Of a DNA stretch of 34,184 nt, positions 6,830 to 31,092 are shown piece after piece (position 1 is the stretch's first letter; each line of letters begins with the position of its first letter). This DNA comes from Ignavibacteriota bacterium. GTDB taxonomy: Bacteria > Bacteroidota > Ignavibacteria > Tepidaquicellales > Tepidaquicellaceae. The position numbers and the translations under genes are program-made. Under the pieces are notes generated by a model that did not search any database, was not told the origin of the DNA, and worked only from the letters and a program-made list of their open reading frames with translations. The stretch covers positions 1 to 34,184 of the forward strand of contig JAGQWH010000022.1 in NCBI GenBank assembly GCA_020437545.1, given 5' to 3'.

Positions 6830-6926
6830 CTTAATCTTTTAACTTTTAACTTTCAACTTTCAACTTTTAACTTTCAACTTTTAACTTTCAACTTTTAACT
6901 TTCAACTTTCAACTTTCAACTTTCAA
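6830..6926. repeat. Heptamer tandem array (AACTTTC/AACTTTT)
   Basis: About a dozen copies of a 7-base unit, AACTTTC or AACTTTT on the plus strand (TTGAAAG/TTAAAAG in nuoC mRNA sense). The array starts directly after the TAG stop of nuoC and fills much of the nuoC-nuoD gap. Copies vary mostly at the last base. Confidence 0.9.
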
Positions 6927-7388
6927 CTAAAGCTCTACTATATTCACCGGATCCACATAATCTTTCCTCATCGGATATCCCACCCAGTCATCTTCGAGAA
7001 ATATTCTTCTGAGATCAGGGTGATTTAGAAATTTTATCCCGAAGAGATCATAGACTTCCCTTTCATGAAATTCTGCGGTTTTCCAAATATCACACAAAGT
7101 TTCAACTTCCGGATTTTCCCTGTCATCTATTTTAACTTTCATCACGACAGTATGGTCATTCTTTGTTGAATACAAATGATATACGACCATCATATGCGTA
7201 ACCCAGTCAACGCCTGTAAGACAGAACATGTAGTCAAAAGACAGATCCGGATCGGAATTAAATTGTTCGGCAAGTTTACGGAGATCCGCAGGTAAAACTG
7301 TTACATTAAGAAATTCATAAACGGGGTCAGTAAATTCAGCTGACGGGACAATGGTTAAAATTTTTTGTTTCAGATCGTCATTATTCAT
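6927..7388 (-). CDS. nuoC: NADH-quinone oxidoreductase subunit C
   Basis: The 30-kDa-type peripheral subunit of complex I, 153 aa. The C-terminal signature EREVYDLFGIKFLNHPDLRR, followed by GYPMRKDY, is diagnostic. It has no fused NuoD domain. The gene is 50 bases after nuoB. Its stop codon TAG touches a heptamer repeat array. Confidence 0.96.
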   Translation of the reverse strand: MNNDDLKQKILTIVPSAEFTDPVYEFLNVTVLPADLRKLAEQFNSDPDLSFDYMFCLTGVDWVTHMMVVYHLYSTKNDHTVVMKVKIDDRENPEVETLCDIWKTAEFHEREVYDLFGIKFLNHPDLRRIFLEDDWVGYPMRKDYVDPVNIVEL

Positions 7389-13214: not shown

Positions 13215-13306
13215 GGGTTCAAAGGTCAAATGTCAGAGGTCATCTAAGTATCACATCTGACGTTTGACGTTTGACGTTTGTCGTTTGACGTTTGACATCT
13301 GACGGT
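13215..13306. repeat. Heptamer tandem array (GTCAAAT/GTCAGAG, then GTTTGAC)
   Basis: Two related 7-base arrays lie back to back. The first has copies such as GTCAAAT, GTCAGAG and GTCATCT. The second, longer one has CATCTGAC followed by several GTTTGAC copies and CATCTGAC again. It ends at the stop codon of the minus-strand antitoxin-like gene. Confidence 0.8.
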
Positions 13307-19334: not shown

Positions 19335-20807
19335 ATGGACATAAAATCTTCACCAGCAGTAAATATAAAACTTATTCAGGGATTGAGTTTAATTTCGCAA
19401 AAAGAATTCAATGAATTTGTATTCTTTTCAACTTCCAAATATTTTTCGGGGCAAAGAAGCTATTCCGGCATTTTAAAAATTCTTAAAGGTCTTCATAAAT
19501 CAAATTTCAAAGGTCATAGTAATAAAAGCATACTTGAACTTTTGATGAAAGATCTTAATCTAAGCAAGAACACATTACAGAACAGATTGTCTGAGCTATA
19601 CAAGATCTTTGAAATGTTCATTGTAATAAGGCAATTAAAATTTTTACCCATAGACAGAAACAAAATACTGATGAATTATTATTCAGAGAAAAACTCTTTC
19701 AGGTTATTTGAATATGTTTATAATTCTTCAACTGAATCCCTGAAAAAAGAAAAAATTTCTTCCCGTAAGATAAGATCTGAATTTTTGCTTTATGAACTTT
19801 CATCCGTAAAATTATTCCTGCAGGGTAAAAGCAGATCATTCACAGAGCATTTTTCATTAAAATCAGAATTTCATATTTACGGATTTTTGCTGGATCTCCT
19901 TAAGAATTGCATAGAACTTCAGCAGCAGAGATTCATGGGATCAGATCAGAACACTTTGCTTCCCATTATAACTTTGAAAAATCTGCCCGTAAATGAGATC
20001 CTTGAAAAGCTTAAAAAAACAGATCCGGAATACTGCGATCTCATCAGGATCTTTTACGAAATGTATCTTTCATTCGAAGATTATTCTGCAGATTTGCATT
20101 TTAAAAATGCAGTCGGAATACATAAAAAAATAAAGTCATCTCTTACACATGACGATAATCAGTTTATTTATTTACTGTTTATTACCTATTGCATTAATCA
20201 GACTCATTTCAACAAACCCGGTTTTTACAAACAATTATTCAGCATCATTCGGCAAAAGCTTAAAGACGGATATTTCATAGAACTCACAGAATATAATTTC
20301 CCAGTTAATAATTTCAGAGATTATGTATTCATCGGGCTCAGGGTCGGCGAAATAGAGTGGGTCAGATCTTTTATAAAAGATTATTCAAAATACCTTCCCT
20401 CTGATTACAGAAAAGATAACATCTTAATTGCAGAGGCAATGATAGCCGCGGAAGAAAGAAAGTTTGAAGATGCTCTCATACTTCTTAATAAGGTCACAAG
20501 GAAAAATTATCTTCATTATACTGATTCTTCATTTCAAAAATTAAGAGCATACTATGAGCTAAAGCATTATGTAGACGCTTTAACCGAGATAGAAAGAATA
20601 AAAAAATATTTTAAAACAAATAAAAACATACCGTCAATATTTCTGAAAAAATATTCACCTTATTTAAAAGATATTGAAATACTATTTAAATTTTCCGAAG
20701 GGAAAATTGACAGAAACGATTTTAATTTGTATTTCAAAAAACCCGGAAAAATTTCCGGAGATAACTGGGTTGGTAAAACCGTTAACAAGATCTTAAAAAA
20801 TAATTGA
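19335..20807 (+). CDS. Unrecognised helical protein, 490 aa
   Basis: I do not recognise a named family. The protein has no signal peptide or membrane helix, is rich in Lys, Leu, Phe and Ser, and looks almost entirely alpha-helical. The N-terminal part (LISQKEFNEFVFFSTSKYFS, then LLMKDLNLSKNTLQNRLSEL) recalls a class of long hypothetical proteins common in Bacteroidota that begin with an LSxKE..F..F..S.YF segment. The C-terminal half, with EDALILLNKVTRKNYLHYTD and YVDALTEIERIKKYF, looks TPR-like. It is possibly a helical-repeat scaffold. The DNA is AT-rich. Its TGA stop merges into a GATAATT heptamer array. Confidence 0.7.
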   Translation: MDIKSSPAVNIKLIQGLSLISQKEFNEFVFFSTSKYFSGQRSYSGILKILKGLHKSNFKGHSNKSILELLMKDLNLSKNTLQNRLSELYKIFEMFIVIRQLKFLPIDRNKILMNYYSEKNSFRLFEYVYNSSTESLKKEKISSRKIRSEFLLYELSSVKLFLQGKSRSFTEHFSLKSEFHIYGFLLDLLKNCIELQQQRFMGSDQNTLLPIITLKNLPVNEILEKLKKTDPEYCDLIRIFYEMYLSFEDYSADLHFKNAVGIHKKIKSSLTHDDNQFIYLLFITYCINQTHFNKPGFYKQLFSIIRQKLKDGYFIELTEYNFPVNNFRDYVFIGLRVGEIEWVRSFIKDYSKYLPSDYRKDNILIAEAMIAAEERKFEDALILLNKVTRKNYLHYTDSSFQKLRAYYELKHYVDALTEIERIKKYFKTNKNIPSIFLKKYSPYLKDIEILFKFSEGKIDRNDFNLYFKKPGKISGDNWVGKTVNKILKNN

Positions 20808-20840
20808 TAATTGATAATTGATAATTGATAATTGATAATT
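20803..20840. repeat. Heptamer tandem array (GATAATT)
   Basis: Five copies of the 7-base unit GATAATT, starting within the last codons of the upstream gene (AATAATTGA). It ends about 20 bases before the next start codon. Confidence 0.9.
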
Positions 20841-22012: not shown

Positions 22013-22681
22013 ATGGAAACATCAGACATAAAAAACATCTGGAAATCTCACGACGACCTGCTGGACAGATCAATGAAACTGAATATCCTTTGCCTGGAAA
22101 TAATACAGTCTCAGAAATCAAAATCCGGATTAAAGCCATTATTGTTTTTAAGAATATTTGAAACAATTGTACACATTTTTATAGCGTTCTTTCTGGGAAG
22201 TATCCTAGTTGAAGTTTCTTCCAATATAAACATTGCTATACTTTTGACTGCAGTATTAATGTTTGTGATCTATTCTTTGATTTTATGTATCAGACAAATA
22301 GTGATCATTGTTCAGATAAACTACAGTGATAGTGTCACGGATATTCAGAAAAAGCTGACTCTGCTTCAGACTCATATTCTGGATTATTTTAAATTAGTAT
22401 TTTTAGTGATCCCGTTCTGGTTCGTATATCCGGTCCTCGGGCTTTATCTGTTTGCAGATGTGGATGTCATAAGCGCGTTACCAAAAGAATGGTGGATCGG
22501 AAATATTATAGTCAGCTCAATATTTACTTTCCTTTCGATTTATGCCTATACTCAGGTATCATATAAAAACATGAACAAAAAATGGGTAAGGTTTTTTATA
22601 AATAATGCCGGTGGAAAATCTGTTACGAAAGCAATTCAGTTTTTGAATGTGTTGGATAGGTTTGAAGATGAAAAGCATTGA
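22013..22681 (+). CDS. Membrane protein, probable partner (anti-sigma-like) of the ECF factor
   Basis: A 222-aa protein beginning METSDIKNIWKSHDDLLDRS, a soluble N-terminal helix followed by four hydrophobic segments (about residues 47-70, 74-97, 127-147, 162-184). Similar small membrane proteins follow ECF sigma genes in Bacteroidota, with the same DIKxIWKxHDxxLDRSxKLN-like start. No zinc-binding HxxxCxxC anti-sigma motif is present. The role as an anti-sigma factor is inferred from position. The stop codon TGA runs directly into a heptamer array. Confidence 0.75.
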   Translation: METSDIKNIWKSHDDLLDRSMKLNILCLEIIQSQKSKSGLKPLLFLRIFETIVHIFIAFFLGSILVEVSSNINIAILLTAVLMFVIYSLILCIRQIVIIVQINYSDSVTDIQKKLTLLQTHILDYFKLVFLVIPFWFVYPVLGLYLFADVDVISALPKEWWIGNIIVSSIFTFLSIYAYTQVSYKNMNKKWVRFFINNAGGKSVTKAIQFLNVLDRFEDEKH

Positions 22682-22777
22682 GTTATGAGTTATGAGTTAT
22701 GAGTATTGAGATATGAGTTATGAGATATGAGTTATGAGATATGAGTTATGATCCGCCGAGGCGGAATGAGTTATGAG
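22682..22777. repeat. Heptamer tandem array (GTTATGA/GATATGA) interrupted by a palindrome
   Basis: More than ten copies of the 7-base unit GTTATGA, GATATGA or GTATTGA begin immediately after the TGA stop of the preceding gene. At 22752 the array is broken by TCCGCCGAGGCGGA and then resumes with ATGAGTTATGAG. Confidence 0.9.
22752..22765. repeat. 14-bp palindrome TCCGCCGAGGCGGA, second copy
   Basis: An exact copy of the 14-base palindrome at 13620-13633. It is GC-rich in an otherwise AT-rich array and forms a 6-base stem with a 2-base turn. Confidence 0.85.
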
Positions 22778-22840
22778 AAAATTGCAGGAAGGTAAATCAA
22801 AAATCAACAATCAAAAATCAAAGATCTTTTAAATCCCAAA

Positions 22841-24034
22841 TCAACTTAATTCTTCGTGATAAGCTATACTCGATCCCACCCAGGTCTGATTTTTGTTAAA
22901 ATCGACTCCCATCATTTTTCCTTTTGACAGACGGACAAGATTGTGTATTAGCTGAGGTTTGTCATTCCATACAAATAACAGTCTTAGTTCAGCTTTTGCA
23001 GGAATGTCAGGAGTGACAATTGAAGGTTCGTAGTTTACTTTTCTCTGAAGTATGTAATCTTTCTTTTTGTCTTCGGGTATGGCAACAAGATCTTCTTTTT
23101 TAAGATCAAAAATAACGCCTGCCCCGGCAAAAGAATAGAGTGGTTTTAAAACATAATTTTCAAGATCCTCGGGAATTTCTTTTACGTCACTGAGAAAATC
23201 TGTTTTCGGAACGTATTTATTTTTAAAAAAAGGAATTGAATATTTACTTATCTTGAAAAACCAGTTGGGATGCGCTACCCATTTTACATCAAGCTCTTCT
23301 GAGAATCTGAAGTCATATTTAATGTCAGATCGTTTTGCAAGTTCATCATAAATAACCCTGTTGTAAATCTTCTCGATCGGCGTTTTCTTTCCGTTATTAT
23401 CATAAAAAAGTTTTTTACCTTCCCTTTTTACTTTTGTGATACATACAGGTTTGACACCAATATATTTTTCCGTGCATAAAAAATCTATGTAAGTCTTTTG
23501 CTTTTCAGGTTCGATATCAAGCAGTATTACATTCTCAGGATCAGAATCTCCGACAATAGTATCTTTGACAATTTTCATATATGAATTCGGATTCAGACCA
23601 TTGAAATGAGTATATAGATTATCACCAATATCAAAGTGCGTTCTCATTTTAATGTTGAGCAGCTCCTGATAACAATAGAGAGAAGCAAATCCCTGAAGTT
23701 CGATCAGCTGAGGGATGAAATTTCCGTTTTCATCTTTACATATTGCAAAATCTATAGCAAGCAGCGAAGTATGCTCGTCTTCATTCGGAACTTCGAGTTG
23801 CCTGGGCAGACCGCCCTTTGAAAATTCTTTGAACTCTTTGCTTTGTAACGCAGTAGTAAATTCTTCCGCAGCGTTAGAAATTTCATTCATTAAATGTTTC
23901 GGAAGGAATATAGGTGTCTCAGCAATCCGGAAATCGATCTTATAATCAAATTCCGAATTCATGTCCTTGACAAAGTCTTCGTATTTGGACTGTGTGAATT
24001 CGGAAATATATTTTTCTCTGAGAGACTTAATCAA
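22841..24034 (-). CDS. Divergent ATP-grasp-like protein
   Basis: A 397-aa soluble protein with features of an ATP-grasp amide ligase. It has an N-terminal block with IPQLIELQGFASLYCYQELL (108-127), NRVIYDEL at 225-232, and VLKPLYSFAGAGVIFD at 295-310, which resembles the ATP-grasp lysine and glycine-rich loop. RLLFVW and NLVRLSKGKMMGVDFNKN follow near the end, where acidic and asparagine metal ligands usually sit. The substrate is unknown. The start is a TTG at 24034 that lies at the edge of a heptamer array. The next ATG, at 23962, would drop 24 residues. It follows the M29-like gene in the same direction but is separated by 235 bases of repeats, so cotranscription is likely but not certain. 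Confidence 0.7.
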   Translation of the reverse strand: MIKSLREKYISEFTQSKYEDFVKDMNSEFDYKIDFRIAETPIFLPKHLMNEISNAAEEFTTALQSKEFKEFSKGGLPRQLEVPNEDEHTSLLAIDFAICKDENGNFIPQLIELQGFASLYCYQELLNIKMRTHFDIGDNLYTHFNGLNPNSYMKIVKDTIVGDSDPENVILLDIEPEKQKTYIDFLCTEKYIGVKPVCITKVKREGKKLFYDNNGKKTPIEKIYNRVIYDELAKRSDIKYDFRFSEELDVKWVAHPNWFFKISKYSIPFFKNKYVPKTDFLSDVKEIPEDLENYVLKPLYSFAGAGVIFDLKKEDLVAIPEDKKKDYILQRKVNYEPSIVTPDIPAKAELRLLFVWNDKPQLIHNLVRLSKGKMMGVDFNKNQTWVGSSIAYHEELS

Positions 24035-24204
24035 AAGTTGAAAGTTAAAAGTTAAAAGTTAAAAGTTGAAAGTCAAAGGTCAAAAGTCAAAGGTCAAAGG
24101 TCAAAGGTCAAAAGTCAAAAGTCAAAGGTCAAAAGTCAAAGGTCAAAGGTCAAAGGTCAAAGGTCAAAGGTCAATGGTCAAAGGTCAAAGGTCAAAGGTC
24201 AAAA
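24035..24204. repeat. Long heptamer tandem array (GGTCAAA/AGTCAAA, with AGTTAAA end)
   Basis: About 24 copies of a 7-base unit, starting as AGTTAAA/AGTTGAA next to the ATP-grasp-like gene and continuing as AGTCAAA/GGTCAAA. It gives an open frame of monotonous Lys-Val-Lys-Gly-Gln-type sequence, which is not a real gene. Confidence 0.95.
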
Positions 24205-24210
24205 GCTCTT

Positions 24211-24264
24211 ATACTCAATACCCAATACACAATACACAATACTCAATACTCAATACTCAATACT
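24211..24264. repeat. Heptamer tandem array (CAATACT/CAATACA)
   Basis: Seven copies of a different 7-base unit, CAATACC, CAATACA or CAATACT, run from the previous array almost to the stop of the M29-like gene. In that gene's mRNA sense the array (TATTGAG) begins a few bases after its TAA. Confidence 0.9.
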
Positions 24265-24269
24265 AAGTA

Positions 24270-25292
24270 TTAAATAAGAAACTTCCCGCACTCCATAACT
24301 TTTTCATCTTCGAGCCAGATGTCCATGTCAATTCCAACACAGTCAATATGAGTAGTAGAAACCCAGTCAGCTCCGGTATGCTCTGAATACGGATGACCAA
24401 AAGCCATATGAATGCTTGGCAGTTTTTCATCCTGCAGGATCTCTCCGATCACTTTTGAGATAGCTATGTTTGTACCGATCGCAAATTCACCTACTCTGTT
24501 ACTGTTCTCATCTGTCATAGTGTACGCAGTGAACTCATCAAGAAGCGCAGTATTTTCACAGGTAAGTTTTTTAATTCTTGCATCTTCAATTTCAATAAAA
24601 AGAGGAGTATCTTTCAGATCCCCGTATTTCGGACAAAGATAATCTCCAACAACGCCGTCTACAACAAACAGACCTTCAACATTAAGCGGTGAAGTAAAAA
24701 TCTCTCCGCCCGGAAGGTTACCCCATTTATCAACTGATATAATTCCGCTTGTCTTCAGCCAGTTGAGTTTGTGAGAAAACTCTGCTACGACATCCGTTCC
24801 GCCTTTTGATTTGCATTTTATGTATCTGGCTTTCCTTGCCTTTTCAATAAGCTTCTGACTCAATTTATCAATTTCAAGGAAATCAGCTCTCATAGCTTCT
24901 TTCATAATTCTCTTGCTGATGTTAACCATGTGACCATGACGGATCTTATGTCTGTTAACGACTGCAGTCATTTGTATTCTGGAACTTAGTTCTCCTGTCT
25001 GAGCCTGTGCGCAAAATATACTAACCTGAGATTTAGCAAGATCTTCAAGTATTGGTTTTGGCATATTCGGAGTTGGTCTAGCTACATAATCCTCGATCAC
25101 CATGAGACTGAACTCTGACCCTACTTTTTTAACTTCACTTACAATTGAAGTAGCAATTTCAAGTGAATCATTGTCGGTAATAATAGTAATTCTTTCTTCA
25201 GGTTTTAGCCTGAGACATGAATTGATTGCTTTCTCAGCACCTATGCTCAATTCTTTATCAAAATCAATCTCAGTTATAAAAGAATTTTTCAT
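24270..25292 (-). CDS. M29-family aminopeptidase-like metalloenzyme
   Basis: A 340-aa cytoplasmic protein of the M29 (AmpS / aminopeptidase T) fold. The metal ligands of the family appear in order: E197 in LPGGEIFTSP, E269 in RVGEFAIGTN, H295 in IHMAFGHPY, and H315 with D317 in STTHIDCVG. Family members cleave N-terminal residues from peptides with two metal ions. A related branch (NicX type) is a ring-opening dioxygenase, so a non-peptidase role is possible. The protein is shorter than the 400-aa classical enzymes. Its ATG overlaps the stop of the upstream GCS2 gene by 4 bases (ATGA), so the two are translationally coupled. That fits a role in trimming or recycling the product of the ligases. 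Confidence 0.85.
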   Translation of the reverse strand: MKNSFITEIDFDKELSIGAEKAINSCLRLKPEERITIITDNDSLEIATSIVSEVKKVGSEFSLMVIEDYVARPTPNMPKPILEDLAKSQVSIFCAQAQTGELSSRIQMTAVVNRHKIRHGHMVNISKRIMKEAMRADFLEIDKLSQKLIEKARKARYIKCKSKGGTDVVAEFSHKLNWLKTSGIISVDKWGNLPGGEIFTSPLNVEGLFVVDGVVGDYLCPKYGDLKDTPLFIEIEDARIKKLTCENTALLDEFTAYTMTDENSNRVGEFAIGTNIAISKVIGEILQDEKLPSIHMAFGHPYSEHTGADWVSTTHIDCVGIDMDIWLEDEKVMECGKFLI

Positions 25293-26674
25293 TTTCTATT
25301 GGTATTTTTTTGTTTAATGGATTTTGTTGATTTAATAGAAGGGGTGATTTTCTTTTTTGTTTTTTTTACAACAGCTTTCTTTTGTTTCTTAGCTGCCGTT
25401 TGTTTTTTTGATTTTTCATCAAGATCAATTTGTTCAGAAGTCAGAATTGATACAGGATTTTTAACCGGTTTTTCCTTTAATTTTATTCCGGTCTCGATTT
25501 TTTTATTATCTTTATCGCTGTTACTATTATCATCTTTTATGATAATATTCTTTGGCTGATAAGTGAGTCCGAGATTAGTCTCATCAATAATGTAATCTAC
25601 CAGTTTTTCATAATTCTGATCACTCTCATAAAATACTCTGAGCTGTCTGTCTGCACCGGTTCCTTTATCCAGCATTCTGAAAATATAATTGATCTCTTCA
25701 CGACTTCCGAGTTCATCAACAACATCATCAATAAATTCAAGAAGTTCTTTCATTAGTTCAGTAAACGGCACTTCCTCCTGTTTACCAAAATCAATGAGCT
25801 TACCGCTGATACCGTATCTTGAAGCTCTCCATTTATTTTCCATCATAAGAGCTCTTTCATAGATCCTGAATCCAAGATTCTGCTGAATGAGTTTGTGGAG
25901 TTTTACCACAACTGCCTGTATCAGTGCAGCCAGTGCAATTGTCTCATCTACTCTCATCTGTACATCACAGATCCTGAATTCTAAGGTATTAAAGAAAGGA
26001 TGAGCCCGTATATCCCACCATACTTTCTTTGCATTATCAATACAGTTTGTCTTGATAAGAAGATTAATGAAATTATCATATTCAGCAAGACTGCTGAAAA
26101 AATCAGGAATACCTGTTCGCGGAAATTTATCAAAAACTTTTACTCTGTAAGATTTAAAACCGGTATCTCGACCAAGCCAGAATGGTGAATTCGTTGACAA
26201 GGCAAATATGTGAGGAAGAAAATATCTTGCGGCATTCATTATGTGAATACCTATCTCCCGGTTAGCAATTCCGACATGTACATGCATTCCGAAGATAAGA
26301 TTAGCTCTTGCGGTTTCCTGCATTTCGTTTATGATCTCAGTATATCTCGGATGATCGGTGATCCTCTGATCACGCCAGTGTGAGAATGGATGAGTACCCG
26401 AAGCGGCTATTCTCAGACCGTGATGGTCAGCAAGCATAGCAAGTGAACTCCGGAGATTTATTACTTCTGTACGGGCTTCCTGAATATTTTTGCAGATGTT
26501 TGTACCTGTCTCTATGACAGAAGCATGCATTTCAGGTTTGAAATTTTCCTTAAGTAATAATTTACCTTCATCAAAAATTGTCTGAATATGAGACTGCAGC
26601 TCCCGAGAAACGGGATCGATTATCATAAACTCTTCTTCGATCCCTAAGGTATATGTTTCCTGATTTTCCAGCAA
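25289..26674 (-). CDS. GCS2/YbdK-type carboxylate-amine ligase with lysine-rich tail
   Basis: A 461-aa enzyme of the glutamate-cysteine ligase 2 / YbdK family, which joins a carboxylate to an amine with ATP. The catalytic start YTLGIEEEFMIID is at 8-20, HVHVGI at 131-136, and WWDIRAHPFFNTLEFRICD at 219-237. The ligase part ends near residue 370, where homologues normally end. Residues about 376-461 are an added low-complexity tail, first acidic and Asn-rich, then strongly basic (AAKKQKKAVVKKTKKKI). The gene lies 6 bases after the ATP-grasp gene and overlaps the M29 gene by 4 bases. The amino acid substrates are unknown, and a glutathione-like gamma-glutamyl product is only one option. Confidence 0.85.
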   Translation of the reverse strand: MLENQETYTLGIEEEFMIIDPVSRELQSHIQTIFDEGKLLLKENFKPEMHASVIETGTNICKNIQEARTEVINLRSSLAMLADHHGLRIAASGTHPFSHWRDQRITDHPRYTEIINEMQETARANLIFGMHVHVGIANREIGIHIMNAARYFLPHIFALSTNSPFWLGRDTGFKSYRVKVFDKFPRTGIPDFFSSLAEYDNFINLLIKTNCIDNAKKVWWDIRAHPFFNTLEFRICDVQMRVDETIALAALIQAVVVKLHKLIQQNLGFRIYERALMMENKWRASRYGISGKLIDFGKQEEVPFTELMKELLEFIDDVVDELGSREEINYIFRMLDKGTGADRQLRVFYESDQNYEKLVDYIIDETNLGLTYQPKNIIIKDDNSNSDKDNKKIETGIKLKEKPVKNPVSILTSEQIDLDEKSKKQTAAKKQKKAVVKKTKKKITPSIKSTKSIKQKNTNRK

Positions 26675-26680
26675 TATAAA

Positions 26681-27754
26681 TTATTTAGATTTTTCTTTTT
26701 TTGGTTTAGCTTTTGCTTTTACAGTCTTTGCTTTTTTTACTATTGATCCGTTTTTTGATTCAGCTTTTTTTTTTGTGTCATTATCATTTGTTGAATCATC
26801 CAGCAATGAACCTCCTGCGGAAAAATTCTTTACAAAAGTTCCCCAGGTAAGATTATTCAAACCGTCTTTATGAGTCTTAGCTCTGTTGATAGCCATATTA
26901 GCAGCTGCCTCAACCACCCAGTCAAAATTTTCCTGACCGACAGAGTTCACGTCTGCATCAGGCGCAGGGTTACAGAAATCAATTGCATATGGTATGCCAT
27001 CTCTCACAGCAAATTCTACTGTATTAAAATCATAGCCTAATGCATTATTCAGTCTCAAAACATAATCTTTAATAAGATCAAGCATTTTCTGTTCAGCAGG
27101 TGCTGCATTCGATACATATCTTAAATGATGAGGATTTCTCGGCTCGTAAGGCATGATAAGAACATCTTTTCTGTCTATGCAATAACATCTGAAATACAGA
27201 TCAAAAGTGATCTCTTCCTGAAGCATCATCACAAGTTGCTCTGTTTCCTGATATTTATTAAAAAAATCTGCAGCATCTTCCACTTTATATACACTCTTCC
27301 ATCCGCCGCCTGAAAAAGGTTTGAAGTAAGCCGGGAACCCGACGTATTCGAACATTCCTTCCCAGTCCAATGGGAATGCAAGATTTCTGAATGATTCGCC
27401 TGTTGTGTCTGTAGGATGCTGGTTTGATGGCAATAAAACTGTTTTTGGAACGGGTACGCCTACTTTTGTTGCAAGCGCATTATTGAAAAACTTGTCGTCT
27501 GCTGCCCACCAAAAAGGATTGTTGATAACTGCTGTTCCGCTGATAGCAGCATTTTTCAGCATGCCTCTGTAAAACGGTACGTCCTGTGAAATACGGTCGA
27601 TGATCACGTCATAACCGCAGAACTCACCCTGTTCAACTTTGTCAATATTTACAAATTCCGCTATGATGTCTTTTTCATTCTTTTCATTAACTCTGTCAAC
27701 GAATGCCTGTGGAAAGGTATTTTCCTGTCCGAATAATATTCCGATTTTTTTCAT
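26681..27754 (-). CDS. ATP-grasp ligase (RimK/GshB-like) with lysine-rich tail
   Basis: A 357-aa cytoplasmic ATP-grasp enzyme, first gene of the putative ligase operon. It begins MKKIGILFGQENTFP. DDKFFNNALATKVGVPVPKT at 86-105 and YFKPFSGGGWKSVYKV at 143-158 form the ATP-binding lysines and glycine loop. VEFAVRDGIPYAIDFCNPAP at 246-265 carries the metal-binding acid and asparagine. The family activates a carboxylate as acyl phosphate and couples it to an amine. From about residue 318 the protein ends in a charged tail, DDSTNDNDTKKKAESK then VKKAKTVKAKAKPKKEKSK, similar in kind to the tail of the next gene product. Substrate unknown. Confidence 0.85.
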   Translation of the reverse strand: MKKIGILFGQENTFPQAFVDRVNEKNEKDIIAEFVNIDKVEQGEFCGYDVIIDRISQDVPFYRGMLKNAAISGTAVINNPFWWAADDKFFNNALATKVGVPVPKTVLLPSNQHPTDTTGESFRNLAFPLDWEGMFEYVGFPAYFKPFSGGGWKSVYKVEDAADFFNKYQETEQLVMMLQEEITFDLYFRCYCIDRKDVLIMPYEPRNPHHLRYVSNAAPAEQKMLDLIKDYVLRLNNALGYDFNTVEFAVRDGIPYAIDFCNPAPDADVNSVGQENFDWVVEAAANMAINRAKTHKDGLNNLTWGTFVKNFSAGGSLLDDSTNDNDTKKKAESKNGSIVKKAKTVKAKAKPKKEKSK

Positions 27755-28104
27755 TTAACTTTTATACTCCTTAATTTTTTAAATTTATTGTTTTTATAAA
27801 ATGATTTACAGCCAACTTTTAAACAAACCTGATAATTACTCCCTAAACTGGAATACAATTTGATTTATTTTTTATAAAATTGAAATGTCGGGTAATTTAA
27901 CAAAATTTTGCTTAAAATTATATGGAGATTTTTGTTCTTTTTCTTAAAGTTTTCATTTCCTAAGATACTTTGAGTATTTATTATAAATTCTTTTCCGGTT
28001 ATTAAATTGAAAACCCCTTAAAAAGTCTTAAAAACTGATTAAGGGGTTTAACTTATTAAATTCAGAATTAGATTCGGAAAATTTAATATTTTATTTAAAA
28101 ATTT
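27755..28104. other. Intergenic region without a visible gene
   Basis: About 350 bases between the TonB receptor gene and the ligase operon, both on the minus strand. It is AT-rich and holds one inverted repeat (28011-28049). It must contain the promoter of the ligase operon in its first part, but I cannot point to a convincing one. Confidence 0.5.
28011..28049 (-). terminator. Probable terminator after the TonB receptor gene
   Basis: Perfect 11-base arms, AAACCCCTTAA and TTAAGGGGTTT, around a 17-base AT-rich loop. On the minus strand the hairpin is followed by a short T-rich stretch. It lies about 55 bases after the stop of the receptor gene. Confidence 0.55.
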
Positions 28105-30399
28105 TTAAAACTGCAGACTGAAACCTCCTACTGGAAAGAATCCCCAGTTTAGGATCTTTCCCGTTGTATCCCTGTCCTCATCCCAGTAATACTCACTGAT
28201 GTTTTCTTTATTCAGAAGGTTCTGAAATTCTATATATCCTACTATACCGATATTGTTAAATGTAAAATTTTTATCAATTCTCAGATCAATTCTCTGATAA
28301 TCCGGGATCCTTAAAGCGTTATATCTGCTCATATCATAAATACCCCTGTCAGCAGCAATAGAAGCTTCCGTATCAAATGGAGTATAAGGTTTTCCTGTAG
28401 CATATTTGTATTTTAATCCGATGAGCCAGTCTTTTGCCACCTGATAACCAAGTGTAAGTGTGATCTGATTTGTCTGATCAAATGCACCCGGAACTTTACC
28501 GCCTGCAAGCGCCTGGAATTGTGAGTTCATATATGAATAATTCAGCATCCCGTAAATACCGTTTCCGGAAAGCTTTTTCTGAATTGAGATGTCAAACCCG
28601 TCGACTGTTCCATATCCGTCACTCACCGCGCTTCCTACAAGATTCGGACCGTATTCCGAACCTCCGTTAACAAGTATATATGTCGGATTATTAACACTGA
28701 CAGGATAATTTGAATAATTCTTTCTGTAAACCTCGGCAGTAGCCCTGATGTCCGGCGCGAAGTAATGCTCAATTCCGAAAATGTAATGTTCCGCCTTTAT
28801 CATTTCAAGATTCTTGTTTGATTCATCGGATGCAAGCCAGATATATTCAGGATTTTGATAGAAAATTCCCGCGGAAGCGTTTATTGTTGTAACAGGTGTA
28901 ATATTATAACTTGCTCCTATCCTTGGAGAGAAATTACCTTTGTTATTTAAATATCCGAAATAGTCATATCTCAAACCGGCATTGACTGTTAATCTTTCAT
29001 TAAACAATCTTGAACTGAGATTACTGTATCCGTATAATATTGCCGAACTTATGTCATTGTCAAACCTGAGTTCGGGTGTAATATAGCCTGTGTAAGAAGT
29101 ATCACTTTTATTATAAATATTGTAATTATTCAGTACCATTTTACCTCCGATCCCGGAAGTCAGATTCAGTTTATTATTCAATTGTAAATACAGATCTGAC
29201 TTGAGTAAGGTCTCGCTTTCAAGTGATTTATTGCTGTAGATGACCGAAGTATTATCTTTATTATTCTGTACCGTATTGAAGTCAGTTATATTGGTTGATA
29301 ATACATTTTGTATATAACCGTTTTTAATAAAATATTTGTGTGTAAATCCGCCGCCATAGAACTGCCTGTCGGAAGTCGCATTCTGAAAAGGATTTGCGTT
29401 TTCATCAGTAGTGTCACGCTTACCAAATTCTATGTTATCAATTGCGGAAAATCCTACAAAACCCAGAGAATTTTTTTCATTAAGATCAAAACTGAGTTTC
29501 ATGTTCAGATCCCAGTATTTCGGTACAGCTGATAATCTTATCGCATTCTGTATCAGATCAAGATAACTTCTTCTTACAGATACAAGATATGAACTGTTTT
29601 TTGACAATGCTCCTTCAAACAATCCGCCGAATCCCTGCAGTGAAAGATCCAAATTGTTATAGTAATATTTTCTGCTGCCGTTTCTGAATTTCAGATCAAC
29701 AGCTCCGGATAATTTATTTCCATACATCACCGGAAACCCGCCTGTGTAGATGTTTGCATCCTGCAGAAATTTGAGATTGATCAGACCAATGGGTCCCCCC
29801 GTAGAACCCTGACTGCCGAAATGATTTAAATTCAGGATCTCAACACCGTCAATAAGAAATAAATTTTCGGAAGCCGAACCACCTCTGATAATGAGATCAT
29901 TCCTCTGATCATTTGATATTGAAACTCCCGGACCTGACTGTATCATTCTTGAAATATCCTCTGCAGCACCCGGCGCTCGTCTGATCTCTTCATAATCAAG
30001 ATTTATTGAGCTGACATTTATATCCTGATCCTTCTGAAAATAATTTGATTCAACTTCAATTTCATTTGTAGTTATTGAAGTTGTATTCATTTCAATTATG
30101 ATCTCAAGAGGTCTGTTTGGATAAAGAACAAGATCAGTTTTTAATAAATCAGTGTATCCTATATATGACACTTTCAATTCTATGTTTGTAATCTCAAGAT
30201 CATCAAATGTAAAATAACCTTCAGAATCAGTTCCCGTTTTCTCTCCTGTATTTATAACTTCTATGACAGCATCAGGAAGCGGACTCTGAGTAACTTTATC
30301 AATTACTCTTCCTTTCAGAATACCTTTATTATTCTGAGCAAAGGAAAAATTTGAAGACATTAGAAAAATTAGCAGTGTAAGATAAATTGATTTTTTCAT
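28105..30399 (-). CDS. TonB-dependent outer membrane receptor
   Basis: A 764-aa outer membrane protein. Signal peptide MKKSIYLTLLIFLMSSNFSFAQ. Residues about 26-108 form a carboxypeptidase-regulatory-like beta domain (GRVIDKVTQSPLPDAVIEV, then TDSEGYFTFDDLEI). Residues about 115-240 form the plug (GPGVSISNDQRNDLIIRGGS, then ENLFLIDGVEILNLNHFG). The rest is a beta-barrel ending in phenylalanine (GGFSLQF), as expected for outer membrane insertion. Such receptors import large or scarce ligands with energy from TonB. No SusD-like partner is next to it, so the ligand is unknown. Its promoter region carries the same palindrome as that of the adjacent TetR gene, which suggests control by that repressor. 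Confidence 0.93.
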   Translation of the reverse strand: MKKSIYLTLLIFLMSSNFSFAQNNKGILKGRVIDKVTQSPLPDAVIEVINTGEKTGTDSEGYFTFDDLEITNIELKVSYIGYTDLLKTDLVLYPNRPLEIIIEMNTTSITTNEIEVESNYFQKDQDINVSSINLDYEEIRRAPGAAEDISRMIQSGPGVSISNDQRNDLIIRGGSASENLFLIDGVEILNLNHFGSQGSTGGPIGLINLKFLQDANIYTGGFPVMYGNKLSGAVDLKFRNGSRKYYYNNLDLSLQGFGGLFEGALSKNSSYLVSVRRSYLDLIQNAIRLSAVPKYWDLNMKLSFDLNEKNSLGFVGFSAIDNIEFGKRDTTDENANPFQNATSDRQFYGGGFTHKYFIKNGYIQNVLSTNITDFNTVQNNKDNTSVIYSNKSLESETLLKSDLYLQLNNKLNLTSGIGGKMVLNNYNIYNKSDTSYTGYITPELRFDNDISSAILYGYSNLSSRLFNERLTVNAGLRYDYFGYLNNKGNFSPRIGASYNITPVTTINASAGIFYQNPEYIWLASDESNKNLEMIKAEHYIFGIEHYFAPDIRATAEVYRKNYSNYPVSVNNPTYILVNGGSEYGPNLVGSAVSDGYGTVDGFDISIQKKLSGNGIYGMLNYSYMNSQFQALAGGKVPGAFDQTNQITLTLGYQVAKDWLIGLKYKYATGKPYTPFDTEASIAADRGIYDMSRYNALRIPDYQRIDLRIDKNFTFNNIGIVGYIEFQNLLNKENISEYYWDEDRDTTGKILNWGFFPVGGFSLQF

Positions 30400-30471: not shown

Positions 30472-31092
30472 TTACTTCTTGTTTTGTTTCTTCAAATTCT
30501 CAAAGAAGAATTTCATGCTTTCGGACATCATATGTCTGACATAATTTTCCGGGATCATCGCAAGCCTGTTCCTTATATAAAGTGATACTATCCCGTGAAC
30601 AAGAGACCAGGTCGCAATTGTAGCAGCCATAACGTCATCGCCTTTAAAATATCCGGCATCAAAACATTCCTGTACATTTGATTTTAAATAATCAAATGTC
30701 CTGAATCCGACTTTCCATTCTTCCTTTTTGGCTATTTCAAAACCGGTAGCATTCATGATAAACATTAGATCATAATATTCAGTATTTTTCAGGGCAAAGT
30801 CTATGTATATTTCTCCGTGTTTTATCAGTTTTTCCATTGGATCCTCAATATCTTTTATTTTCATCTGCTCCGAATAAAATTTATCAAATGCAATATTATG
30901 CAGTTCGTATAAAATTTCATCCTTATTCTTAAAATAAAGATAAATAGTACCCGGACTGTATTCCATTTTAGATGCGATCTTCCTCATGGATACTTTTCCA
31001 AAACCTTCCTCTGTAAATAATTTAAGTGAAGTATCGAGTATAAGCTTTTTCATTTCTTCACGGTCGCGGTCTTTTCTTTCTTTGATACCCAT
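30472..31092 (-). CDS. TetR-family transcriptional repressor
   Basis: A 206-aa regulator. The N-terminal helix-turn-helix domain (about residues 12-60) shows LILDTSLKLFTEEGFGKVSM, then RKIASKMEYSPGTIYLYFKN and KDEILYEL, the TetR signature. The C-terminal part is all-helical and ligand-binding in the family (YYDLMFIMNATGFEIAKKEE, then VHGIVSLYIRNRL). It lies directly upstream of the TonB receptor gene. Because each gene has its own promoter with the same palindrome, it probably represses both the receptor and itself. The inducer is unknown. Confidence 0.93.
   Translation of the reverse strand: MGIKERKDRDREEMKKLILDTSLKLFTEEGFGKVSMRKIASKMEYSPGTIYLYFKNKDEILYELHNIAFDKFYSEQMKIKDIEDPMEKLIKHGEIYIDFALKNTEYYDLMFIMNATGFEIAKKEEWKVGFRTFDYLKSNVQECFDAGYFKGDDVMAATIATWSLVHGIVSLYIRNRLAMIPENYVRHMMSESMKFFFENLKKQNKK

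What the first reader, a model, noticed from the sequence alone, without database searches (positions are those of the whole stretch)
22841..27754. Four-gene ligase-peptidase cluster: ATP-grasp, GCS2/YbdK ligase, M29 metalloenzyme, second ATP-grasp
Seen: three minus-strand genes packed with a 6-base gap and a 4-base ATGA overlap, followed by a fourth ATP-grasp-like gene. Known: ATP-grasp and GCS2 enzymes both form amide bonds, and M29 enzymes cleave N-terminal residues. Comparative studies of amidoligases have pointed to such neighbourhoods as unexplored small-peptide or peptide-tag pathways. Inference: the operon makes, and trims or recycles, an unknown amide-linked metabolite or adds residues to a protein. 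No NRPS, carrier protein, transporter or precursor peptide is nearby.
Basis: partly seen in the sequence, partly recalled or inferred. Interest (0 to 1): 0.75.

Follow-up and report, generated by a model that had tools for sequence, protein, structure and literature searches.

The report
Conserved triple-ligase peptide operon
These four neighbouring genes are one version of a widespread, unstudied bacterial operon that probably builds a small gamma-glutamyl-type peptide with three ligases and then trims it; in this lineage an aminopeptidase-like enzyme sits in the place held by an unrelated hydrolase elsewhere.

Summary
In detail: A (RimK-like ATP-grasp), B (YbdK/GCS2 ligase), C (M29-like metallopeptidase) and D (second ATP-grasp) lie on the minus strand with the stated 6-base gap, ATGA overlap and 235-base gap. 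The set keeps together. In 247 genomes of the phylum A occurs in 86, B in 79, D in 74, all three in 65, often unlinked yet still together. The third slot is the new point: it usually holds a class-I glutamine-amidotransferase-fold protein with intact Cys-His-Glu; in the window's lineage it holds the M29 protein, with M29 metal and catalytic residues kept. The two never share a genome (43 against 23 of 245, overlap 0). D's model (pLDDT 95) matches E. coli peptide-spermidine ligases YgiC/YjfC, eukaryotic glutathione synthetase and glutathionylspermidine synthetase (Z 24-25). A matches RimK and LysX/ArgX. None is an ordinary glutathione enzyme by curated cut-offs; the genome carries bacillithiol synthase. 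Best reading: B makes a gamma-glutamyl amide, A and D extend it, C or the GATase removes a residue. The product is unknown. It is a new variant of known amidoligase neighbourhoods, not a categorically new system.

The parts
26681..27754 (-). Gene A: RimK/LysX-fold ATP-grasp ligase, 357 aa, with Lys/Ala-rich unstructured C-terminal tail (about residues 310-357)
   Evidence: TIGR00768 E=2.8e-7; AF2 pLDDT 84.5; VIA Z 21.5 to RimK 5zct and about 20 to ArgX/LysX; homologue in 86 of 247 phylum genomes
25289..26674 (-). Gene B: YbdK/GCS2 carboxylate-amine ligase, 461 aa, with a Lys-rich C-terminal extension not seen in the 89 relatives checked
   Evidence: NF010039 542 bits, above its cut-off of 371; 30% identical to E. 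coli YbdK over 346 aa; tail comparison
24270..25292 (-). Gene C: M29-like metallo-aminopeptidase, 340 aa; E197, E269, H295, Y302, H315, D317 match the M29 ligand and catalytic positions
   Evidence: PF02073 E=3.4e-15; invariant in 7 sequences; aligned with AmpS 1zjc; 43 of 245 class genomes
24035..24269 (.). C-D intergenic gap made of heptanucleotide tandem repeats, (GTCAAAG)n and (ATACTCA)n
   Evidence: Tandem Repeats Finder, sequence
22841..24034 (-). Gene D: ATP-grasp ligase of the eukaryotic glutathione synthetase / glutathionylspermidine synthetase / YgiC fold, 397 aa, TTG start
   Evidence: AF2 pLDDT 94.7; VIA Z 24.9 to YgiC and YjfC, 24.1 to human glutathione synthetase, 23.9 to GspS; D95, E112, Q114, K264, K297 invariant in 60 sequences
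28008..28049 (-). Terminator-like inverted repeat (AAACCCCTTA...TAAGGGGTTTT) between the TonB receptor gene and gene A; read by eye, not scored
   Evidence: sequence

Best explanation
The genes form a biosynthetic cassette for a small peptide-like metabolite. Most likely B uses ATP to join glutamate (through its gamma-carboxyl, as known GCS2 enzymes do) to an amine or amino acid; A and D, two ATP-grasp ligases of different subclasses, each add one more amide bond, D by activating a peptide carboxylate and joining it to an amine or amino acid, as glutathione synthetase and YgiC do; and the third-slot enzyme (GATase-fold Cys hydrolase in most lineages, M29 metallo-aminopeptidase here) cuts one amide bond, most simply removing the N-terminal or gamma-glutamyl residue that served as handle or protecting group. 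Shown here: operon, co-occurrence, folds, kept catalytic residues, slot replacement. Inferred: substrates, order of steps, and that the hydrolase acts on the ligases' product.
For: A-B pairs are adjacent in 77 loci and GATase-D in 66 (median gap 4.5 bases, 25 overlapping). A, B and D co-occur in 65 of 247 genomes, including genomes where they are unlinked. D has the fold of enzymes that act on gamma-glutamyl peptides and keeps ATP/Mg residues. B is a full-length GCS2 ligase. The hydrolase slot is filled by two unrelated folds that exclude each other (43 versus 23 of 245 genomes, overlap 0, P=0.009 without regard to kinship), with swaps inside families f1 and f12, and at least 3 changes forced on the D tree. 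GATase Cys, His and Glu are invariant in 78 of 78. Swapping a Cys enzyme for a metallo-aminopeptidase argues that the slot needs amide hydrolysis, not ammonia supply. Other peptidase-like genes sit beside the cassette in some lineages: M17 aminopeptidase in Flavobacteria, isoaspartyl peptidase in several.
Against: No substrate is identified; gamma-glutamyl chemistry is assumed from family precedent. D lacks the Arg two residues before its Mg-binding Asp that Cp1B needs (R139, PMC12568646) and has Gln in place of Asn, so its acid substrate may differ. Of the 65 A+B+D genomes 21 have neither hydrolase, so trimming is dispensable or done by another protein. In part of the lineages B is missing (Saprospiraceae: A-GATase-D) or B and D are absent and a circularly permuted ATP-grasp is present.
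Confidence: 0.5

Rival explanations
1. Protein modification: A (RimK/LysX-like) and B add residues to a protein terminus and C or the GATase trims them.
For: A's closest folds are RimK and LysX/ArgX, which act on protein termini; A often has a Lys/Ala-rich tail like a nucleic-acid- or protein-binding tail.
Against: No LysW-like carrier or conserved target gene was seen to recur in 160 neighbourhoods; D belongs to a fold whose known members use small molecules or short peptides; esterase genes accompany the operon.
Confidence: 0.15
2. Catabolic gamma-glutamylation: B attaches glutamate to an imported amine, and the third-slot hydrolase later releases the product, as PuuA and PuuD do for putrescine; A and D serve salvage.
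For: The GATase fold is that of PuuD-like hydrolases (family knowledge); a Na+/solute symporter gene is next to, or in one open frame with, D in Thermochlorobacter-like genomes; a YtcJ-like amidohydrolase gene precedes D in another family.
Against: Three ATP-spending ligases are costly for salvage; no aminotransferase or aldehyde dehydrogenase was seen to recur next to the operon across families.
Confidence: 0.15
3. The GATase-fold protein is a true glutaminase that feeds ammonia to D to make a terminal amide; M29 in this lineage is an unrelated addition.
For: GATase triad and GGPG motif kept; the gene is translationally coupled to D in many genomes.
Against: M29 takes the same position and excludes the GATase gene genome-wide; an aminopeptidase cannot supply ammonia from glutamine; D is kept in 21 sampled genomes with neither gene.
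Confidence: 0.1
4. Ordinary glutathione or another main thiol of the cell.
For: GCS2 plus a glutathione-synthetase-fold D look like GshA and GshB.
Against: A and B fall below all glutathione cut-offs; the genome has bacillithiol synthase BshC and no GshB-like hit; a third ligase and a hydrolase are not part of that pathway.
Confidence: 0.07

Closest known systems
E. coli YgiC / YjfC peptide-spermidine ligases and glutathionylspermidine synthetase (GSP_synth, PF03738)
   Same: Whole-length fold match to D (Z about 24-25), Mg-ligand pattern D...E-x-N/Q, two conserved Lys
   Different: About 10% identity; Gln instead of Asn, no Arg at the position before the Asp; D sits with a GCS2 and a RimK-like ligase
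Eukaryotic glutathione / homoglutathione synthetase and fungal Cp1B (E-64 pathway, PMC12568646)
   Same: Same fold (Z 22-24); joins an acid or gamma-Glu-Cys to an amino acid without NRPS
   Different: D is shorter (397 aa), substrate unknown; neighbours differ
E. coli YbdK carboxylate-amine ligase (weak glutamate-cysteine ligase; own knowledge)
   Same: B is full-length homologous, 30% identical
   Different: B belongs to the PRK13515 subgroup and to a conserved operon; E. coli ybdK has none of these partners
RimK, LysX and ArgX ATP-grasp ligases
   Same: Fold of A (Z 20-21.5)
   Different: A is below the rimK_fam cut-off, has a Lys-rich tail and no LysW or S6 partner seen nearby
M29 aminopeptidases (AmpS, AmpT, PepS)
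   Same: C keeps E253, E319, H348, Y355 and the H-x-D motif equivalents
   Different: C is shorter (340 against about 410 aa) and is embedded in a ligase operon
Amidoligase-peptidase gene neighbourhoods predicted by Iyer and colleagues, 2009 (recalled; paper not held)
   Same: ATP-grasp and GCS2 ligases with peptidases, predicted peptide or tag pathways
   Different: Whether this exact cassette, or the M29-GATase swap, was described there could not be checked

Membership tests
YbdK / GCS2 carboxylate-amine ligase (gene B) | Match above curated family cut-off over the full domain | tested here: met
   PF04107 209 bits against 21; TIGR02050 298 against 176; NF010039 542 against 371
YbdK / GCS2 carboxylate-amine ligase (gene B) | ATP-dependent gamma-glutamyl amide formation | not testable with these tools
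   needs enzyme assay
RimK alpha-L-glutamate ligase family (gene A) | Curated cut-off of TIGR00768 | tested here: not met
   30 bits against 143.4; filed only as RimK-fold ATP-grasp
RimK alpha-L-glutamate ligase family (gene A) | RimK-type ATP-grasp fold | tested here: met
   Z 21.5 to 5zct, 262 residues, rmsd 3.1
M29 aminopeptidase (gene C) | PF02073 above cut-off | tested here: met
   56 bits against 27
M29 aminopeptidase (gene C) | Metal ligands and catalytic Glu and Tyr | tested here: met
   E197, E269, H295, Y302 align with AmpS; H315-x-D317 by motif; ligand identities in AmpS from own knowledge
M29 aminopeptidase (gene C) | Aminopeptidase activity | not testable with these tools
   needs enzyme assay
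Glutathionylspermidine synthetase / eukaryotic GSS-type ATP-grasp (gene D) | Fold over the whole length | tested here: met
   Z 24.9 YgiC/YjfC, 23.9 GspS, 24.1 human GSS
Glutathionylspermidine synthetase / eukaryotic GSS-type ATP-grasp (gene D) | Sequence above PF03738 cut-off | tested here: not met
   no hit for the window protein; 17.9 bits against 29.3 for a relative
Glutathionylspermidine synthetase / eukaryotic GSS-type ATP-grasp (gene D) | Catalytic Arg-x-Asp and Glu-x-Asn motifs | tested here: not met
   Asp and Glu invariant, Arg replaced by Gln/Ala/Val, Asn by Gln; residue roles from PMC12568646
Glutathione biosynthesis pathway | GshA and GshB equivalogs | tested here: not met
   B and A below the glutathione cut-offs; no TIGR01380 hit in the genome
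Class-I GATase-fold hydrolase in the third slot of relatives | Cys-His-Glu triad | tested here: met
   invariant in 78 of 78; PF00117 43 bits against 22.8

The most novel reading that the evidence does not exclude
A so far unknown small peptide or peptide-amine conjugate, made by a glutathione/glutathionylspermidine-like three-ligase route, is common across Bacteroidota, and its trimming step has been taken over repeatedly by two unrelated hydrolases.
Probability: 0.35. Interest if true: 0.85.

Novelty: new variant of a known kind. Interest (0 to 1): 0.6.

Why it matters
A compact operon with three amide-forming enzymes and a trimming enzyme is present in roughly a quarter of sampled genomes of a major environmental phylum, including culturable genera (Spirosoma, Chitinophaga, Hymenobacter, Dyadobacter, Arenibacter), yet its product is unknown. 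The natural replacement of the hydrolase gives a functional clue that is directly testable: both enzymes should act on the same substrate.

Tried and rejected
Ordinary glutathione pathway: rejected. D as RimK/GshB-like ATP-grasp: rejected by the structure model (bacterial GshB only Z 7.8 against 24-25). Precursor peptide in the C-D gap: the gap is a heptanucleotide repeat array. RNA elements and tRNA genes in the window: none at Rfam gathering thresholds or by ARAGORN. Plasmid carriage: no match to A or D in the plasmid collection. Literature: no paper on this operon was found in the held library; Iyer 2009 is not held. Saprospiraceae gene upstream of A as a substitute for B: its start reads as a secreted protein, not a ligase (by eye). 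Lys-rich tails as a general feature of B: only the window's B has one. hhalign of the D and A profiles with single E. coli sequences was weak.
Full report
OBSERVATION. On the minus strand the order of transcription is A (26681-27754), B (25289-26674), C (24270-25292), D (22841-24034). The A-B gap is 6 bases, B and C overlap by 4, and the C-D gap of 235 bases is a heptanucleotide repeat array. Upstream of A a terminator-like inverted repeat (28008-28049, by eye) separates it from a TonB-dependent receptor gene (28105-30399) and a TetR gene (30472-31092). B passes the YbdK/GCS2 cut-offs and C the M29 cut-off; A is only distantly RimK-like by sequence; D has no family match of its own, and only a relative gives a weak hit to GSP_synth.

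CONSERVATION. With A as query, 86 of 247 genomes of the phylum have a homologue; B gives 79, D 74, one of them a 25-residue fragment. All three occur in 65 genomes; pairwise Fisher P is 1e-35 to 1e-42 (kinship not corrected). In 160 neighbourhoods (80 around A, 80 around D, with a few shared) A precedes B in 77, the third-slot gene GAT precedes D in 66, and B directly precedes D in 20. In several families the three genes are unlinked but still co-occur, which is stronger evidence of a shared pathway than adjacency alone. Named loci are Ignavibacteria, Melioribacter, Cyclobacteriaceae, Spirosoma, Hymenobacter, Dyadobacter, Chitinophaga, Lewinella, Saprospiraceae, Arenibacter, Gelidibacter, plus MAGs labelled Verrucomicrobia/Opitutaceae, Calditrichaeota and Cloacimonetes.

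THE THIRD SLOT. In most genomes the gene between B and D is not M29 but a class-I GATase-fold protein of about 278 aa, with Cys, His and Glu invariant in 78 sequences. M29 fills the slot in the window and in L036, L081, L164, L165, L166, L168, L175, and in one Opitutaceae bin, L185; L167 and L169 are partial. In 247 phylum genomes GAT occurs in 58 and the C orthologue in 4, never both. In 245 genomes of the window's class C occurs in 43 and GAT in 23, never both (P=0.009 by simple sampling), although both go with the same cassette. Family f1 (the window's) has C in 13 genomes and GAT in one without C; f12 has both kinds in different genomes. On the D tree the M29 label needs 4 changes, of which starred branches force 3. 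This is non-orthologous replacement, possibly helped by transfer of the gene. Since an M29 enzyme cannot do the ammonia-donor job of a GATase, the shared job is most simply hydrolysis of an amide. C keeps the M29 residues E197, E269, H295, Y302, H315, D317; the M29-fold dioxygenase NicX, also matched weakly, does not show the two Glu in that alignment. Some genomes (21 of 65) have neither gene, and in family f3 the GATase gene is present but unlinked.

STRUCTURES. D, from 60 sequences, is predicted with pLDDT 94.7 and matches over its full length E. coli YgiC and YjfC (Z 24.9), human glutathione synthetase (24.1), glutathionylspermidine synthetase (23.9), trypanothione synthetase (21.9) and fungal Cp1B (22.2); bacterial GshB and RimK reach only 7-8. 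Invariant D95, E112, Q114, K264, K297 fit the ATP/Mg site, but the Arg two positions before the Asp, which Cp1B needs together with Asp, Glu and Asn (PMC12568646), is Gln, Ala or Val, and Asn is Gln. A (pLDDT 84.5, tail disordered) matches RimK (21.5) and ArgX/LysX (about 20).

MECHANISM. Proposed: B forms a gamma-glutamyl amide; A and D add further units; C or GAT removes a residue. The known logic is glutathione/glutathionylspermidine synthesis (ligases) and gamma-glutamyl protection followed by hydrolysis, as in PuuA/PuuD (own knowledge). Shown: conservation, folds, kept catalytic residues, slot exclusion. Inferred: substrates, order, that the hydrolase acts on the ligases' product. The window genome has bacillithiol synthase and no glutathione synthetase hit, so this is not simply its main thiol pathway.

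CONTEXT CLUES. An alpha/beta-hydrolase (esterase) gene directly precedes A in 55 loci but not in the window; the window genome has only a 29% relative elsewhere. Flavobacterial cassettes are followed by a third ATP-grasp, an M17 leucyl aminopeptidase and an esterase; one genus has a cyanophycin synthetase, a cyanophycinase-like protein and an isoaspartyl peptidase beside it (assignments mostly by eye). In Thermochlorobacter-like genomes D adjoins a sodium symporter gene, in one case in a single 867-codon frame. In other families B and D are absent and a circularly permuted ATP-grasp stands between A and the GATase gene.

VERDICT. Real, widespread, unexplained; a new variant of a known kind of amidoligase neighbourhood.

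Noticed in passing
window 6836-6928, 13258-13304, 20800-20840, 22679-22751, 22794-22826, 24033-24203, 24211-24264: Arrays of 7-base tandem repeats with varied units, several of them between genes. In 132 kb of this genome there are 22 period-7 rows against about 21 in nearly 3 Mb of other loci, and several sit at contig ends.
   Followed up: partly
window 25292-25560: Gene B of the window carries a Lys-rich C-terminal tail of about 90 residues not seen in 89 relatives; A has tails of 20 residues or more, on average 29% Lys/Arg, in 48 of 122 sequences.
   Followed up: partly
L153:5137-7740: Sodium:solute symporter and D ligase in one 867-codon open frame; the two are separate neighbouring genes in L155 and L201.
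   Followed up: partly
L068:13285-17965: Cyanophycin synthetase-like, cyanophycinase-like and isoaspartyl peptidase genes directly beside the A-B-GATase-D cassette in one genus (three genomes).
   Followed up: no
L185:2198-7169: Complete M29-type cassette in a contig labelled Opitutaceae (Verrucomicrobiota), 62-65% identical in A, B and C: transfer of the cassette or a mis-binned contig.
   Followed up: no
L098:9159-13534: Variant cassette: A, then a circularly permuted ATP-grasp (PF14403) where B would be, then the GATase and another esterase; no B or D nearby.
   Followed up: partly
window 28105-30399 and 30472-31092: TonB-dependent receptor gene with a TetR-type regulator gene upstream of the cassette on the same strand; not found to be a conserved part of it.
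   Followed up: no
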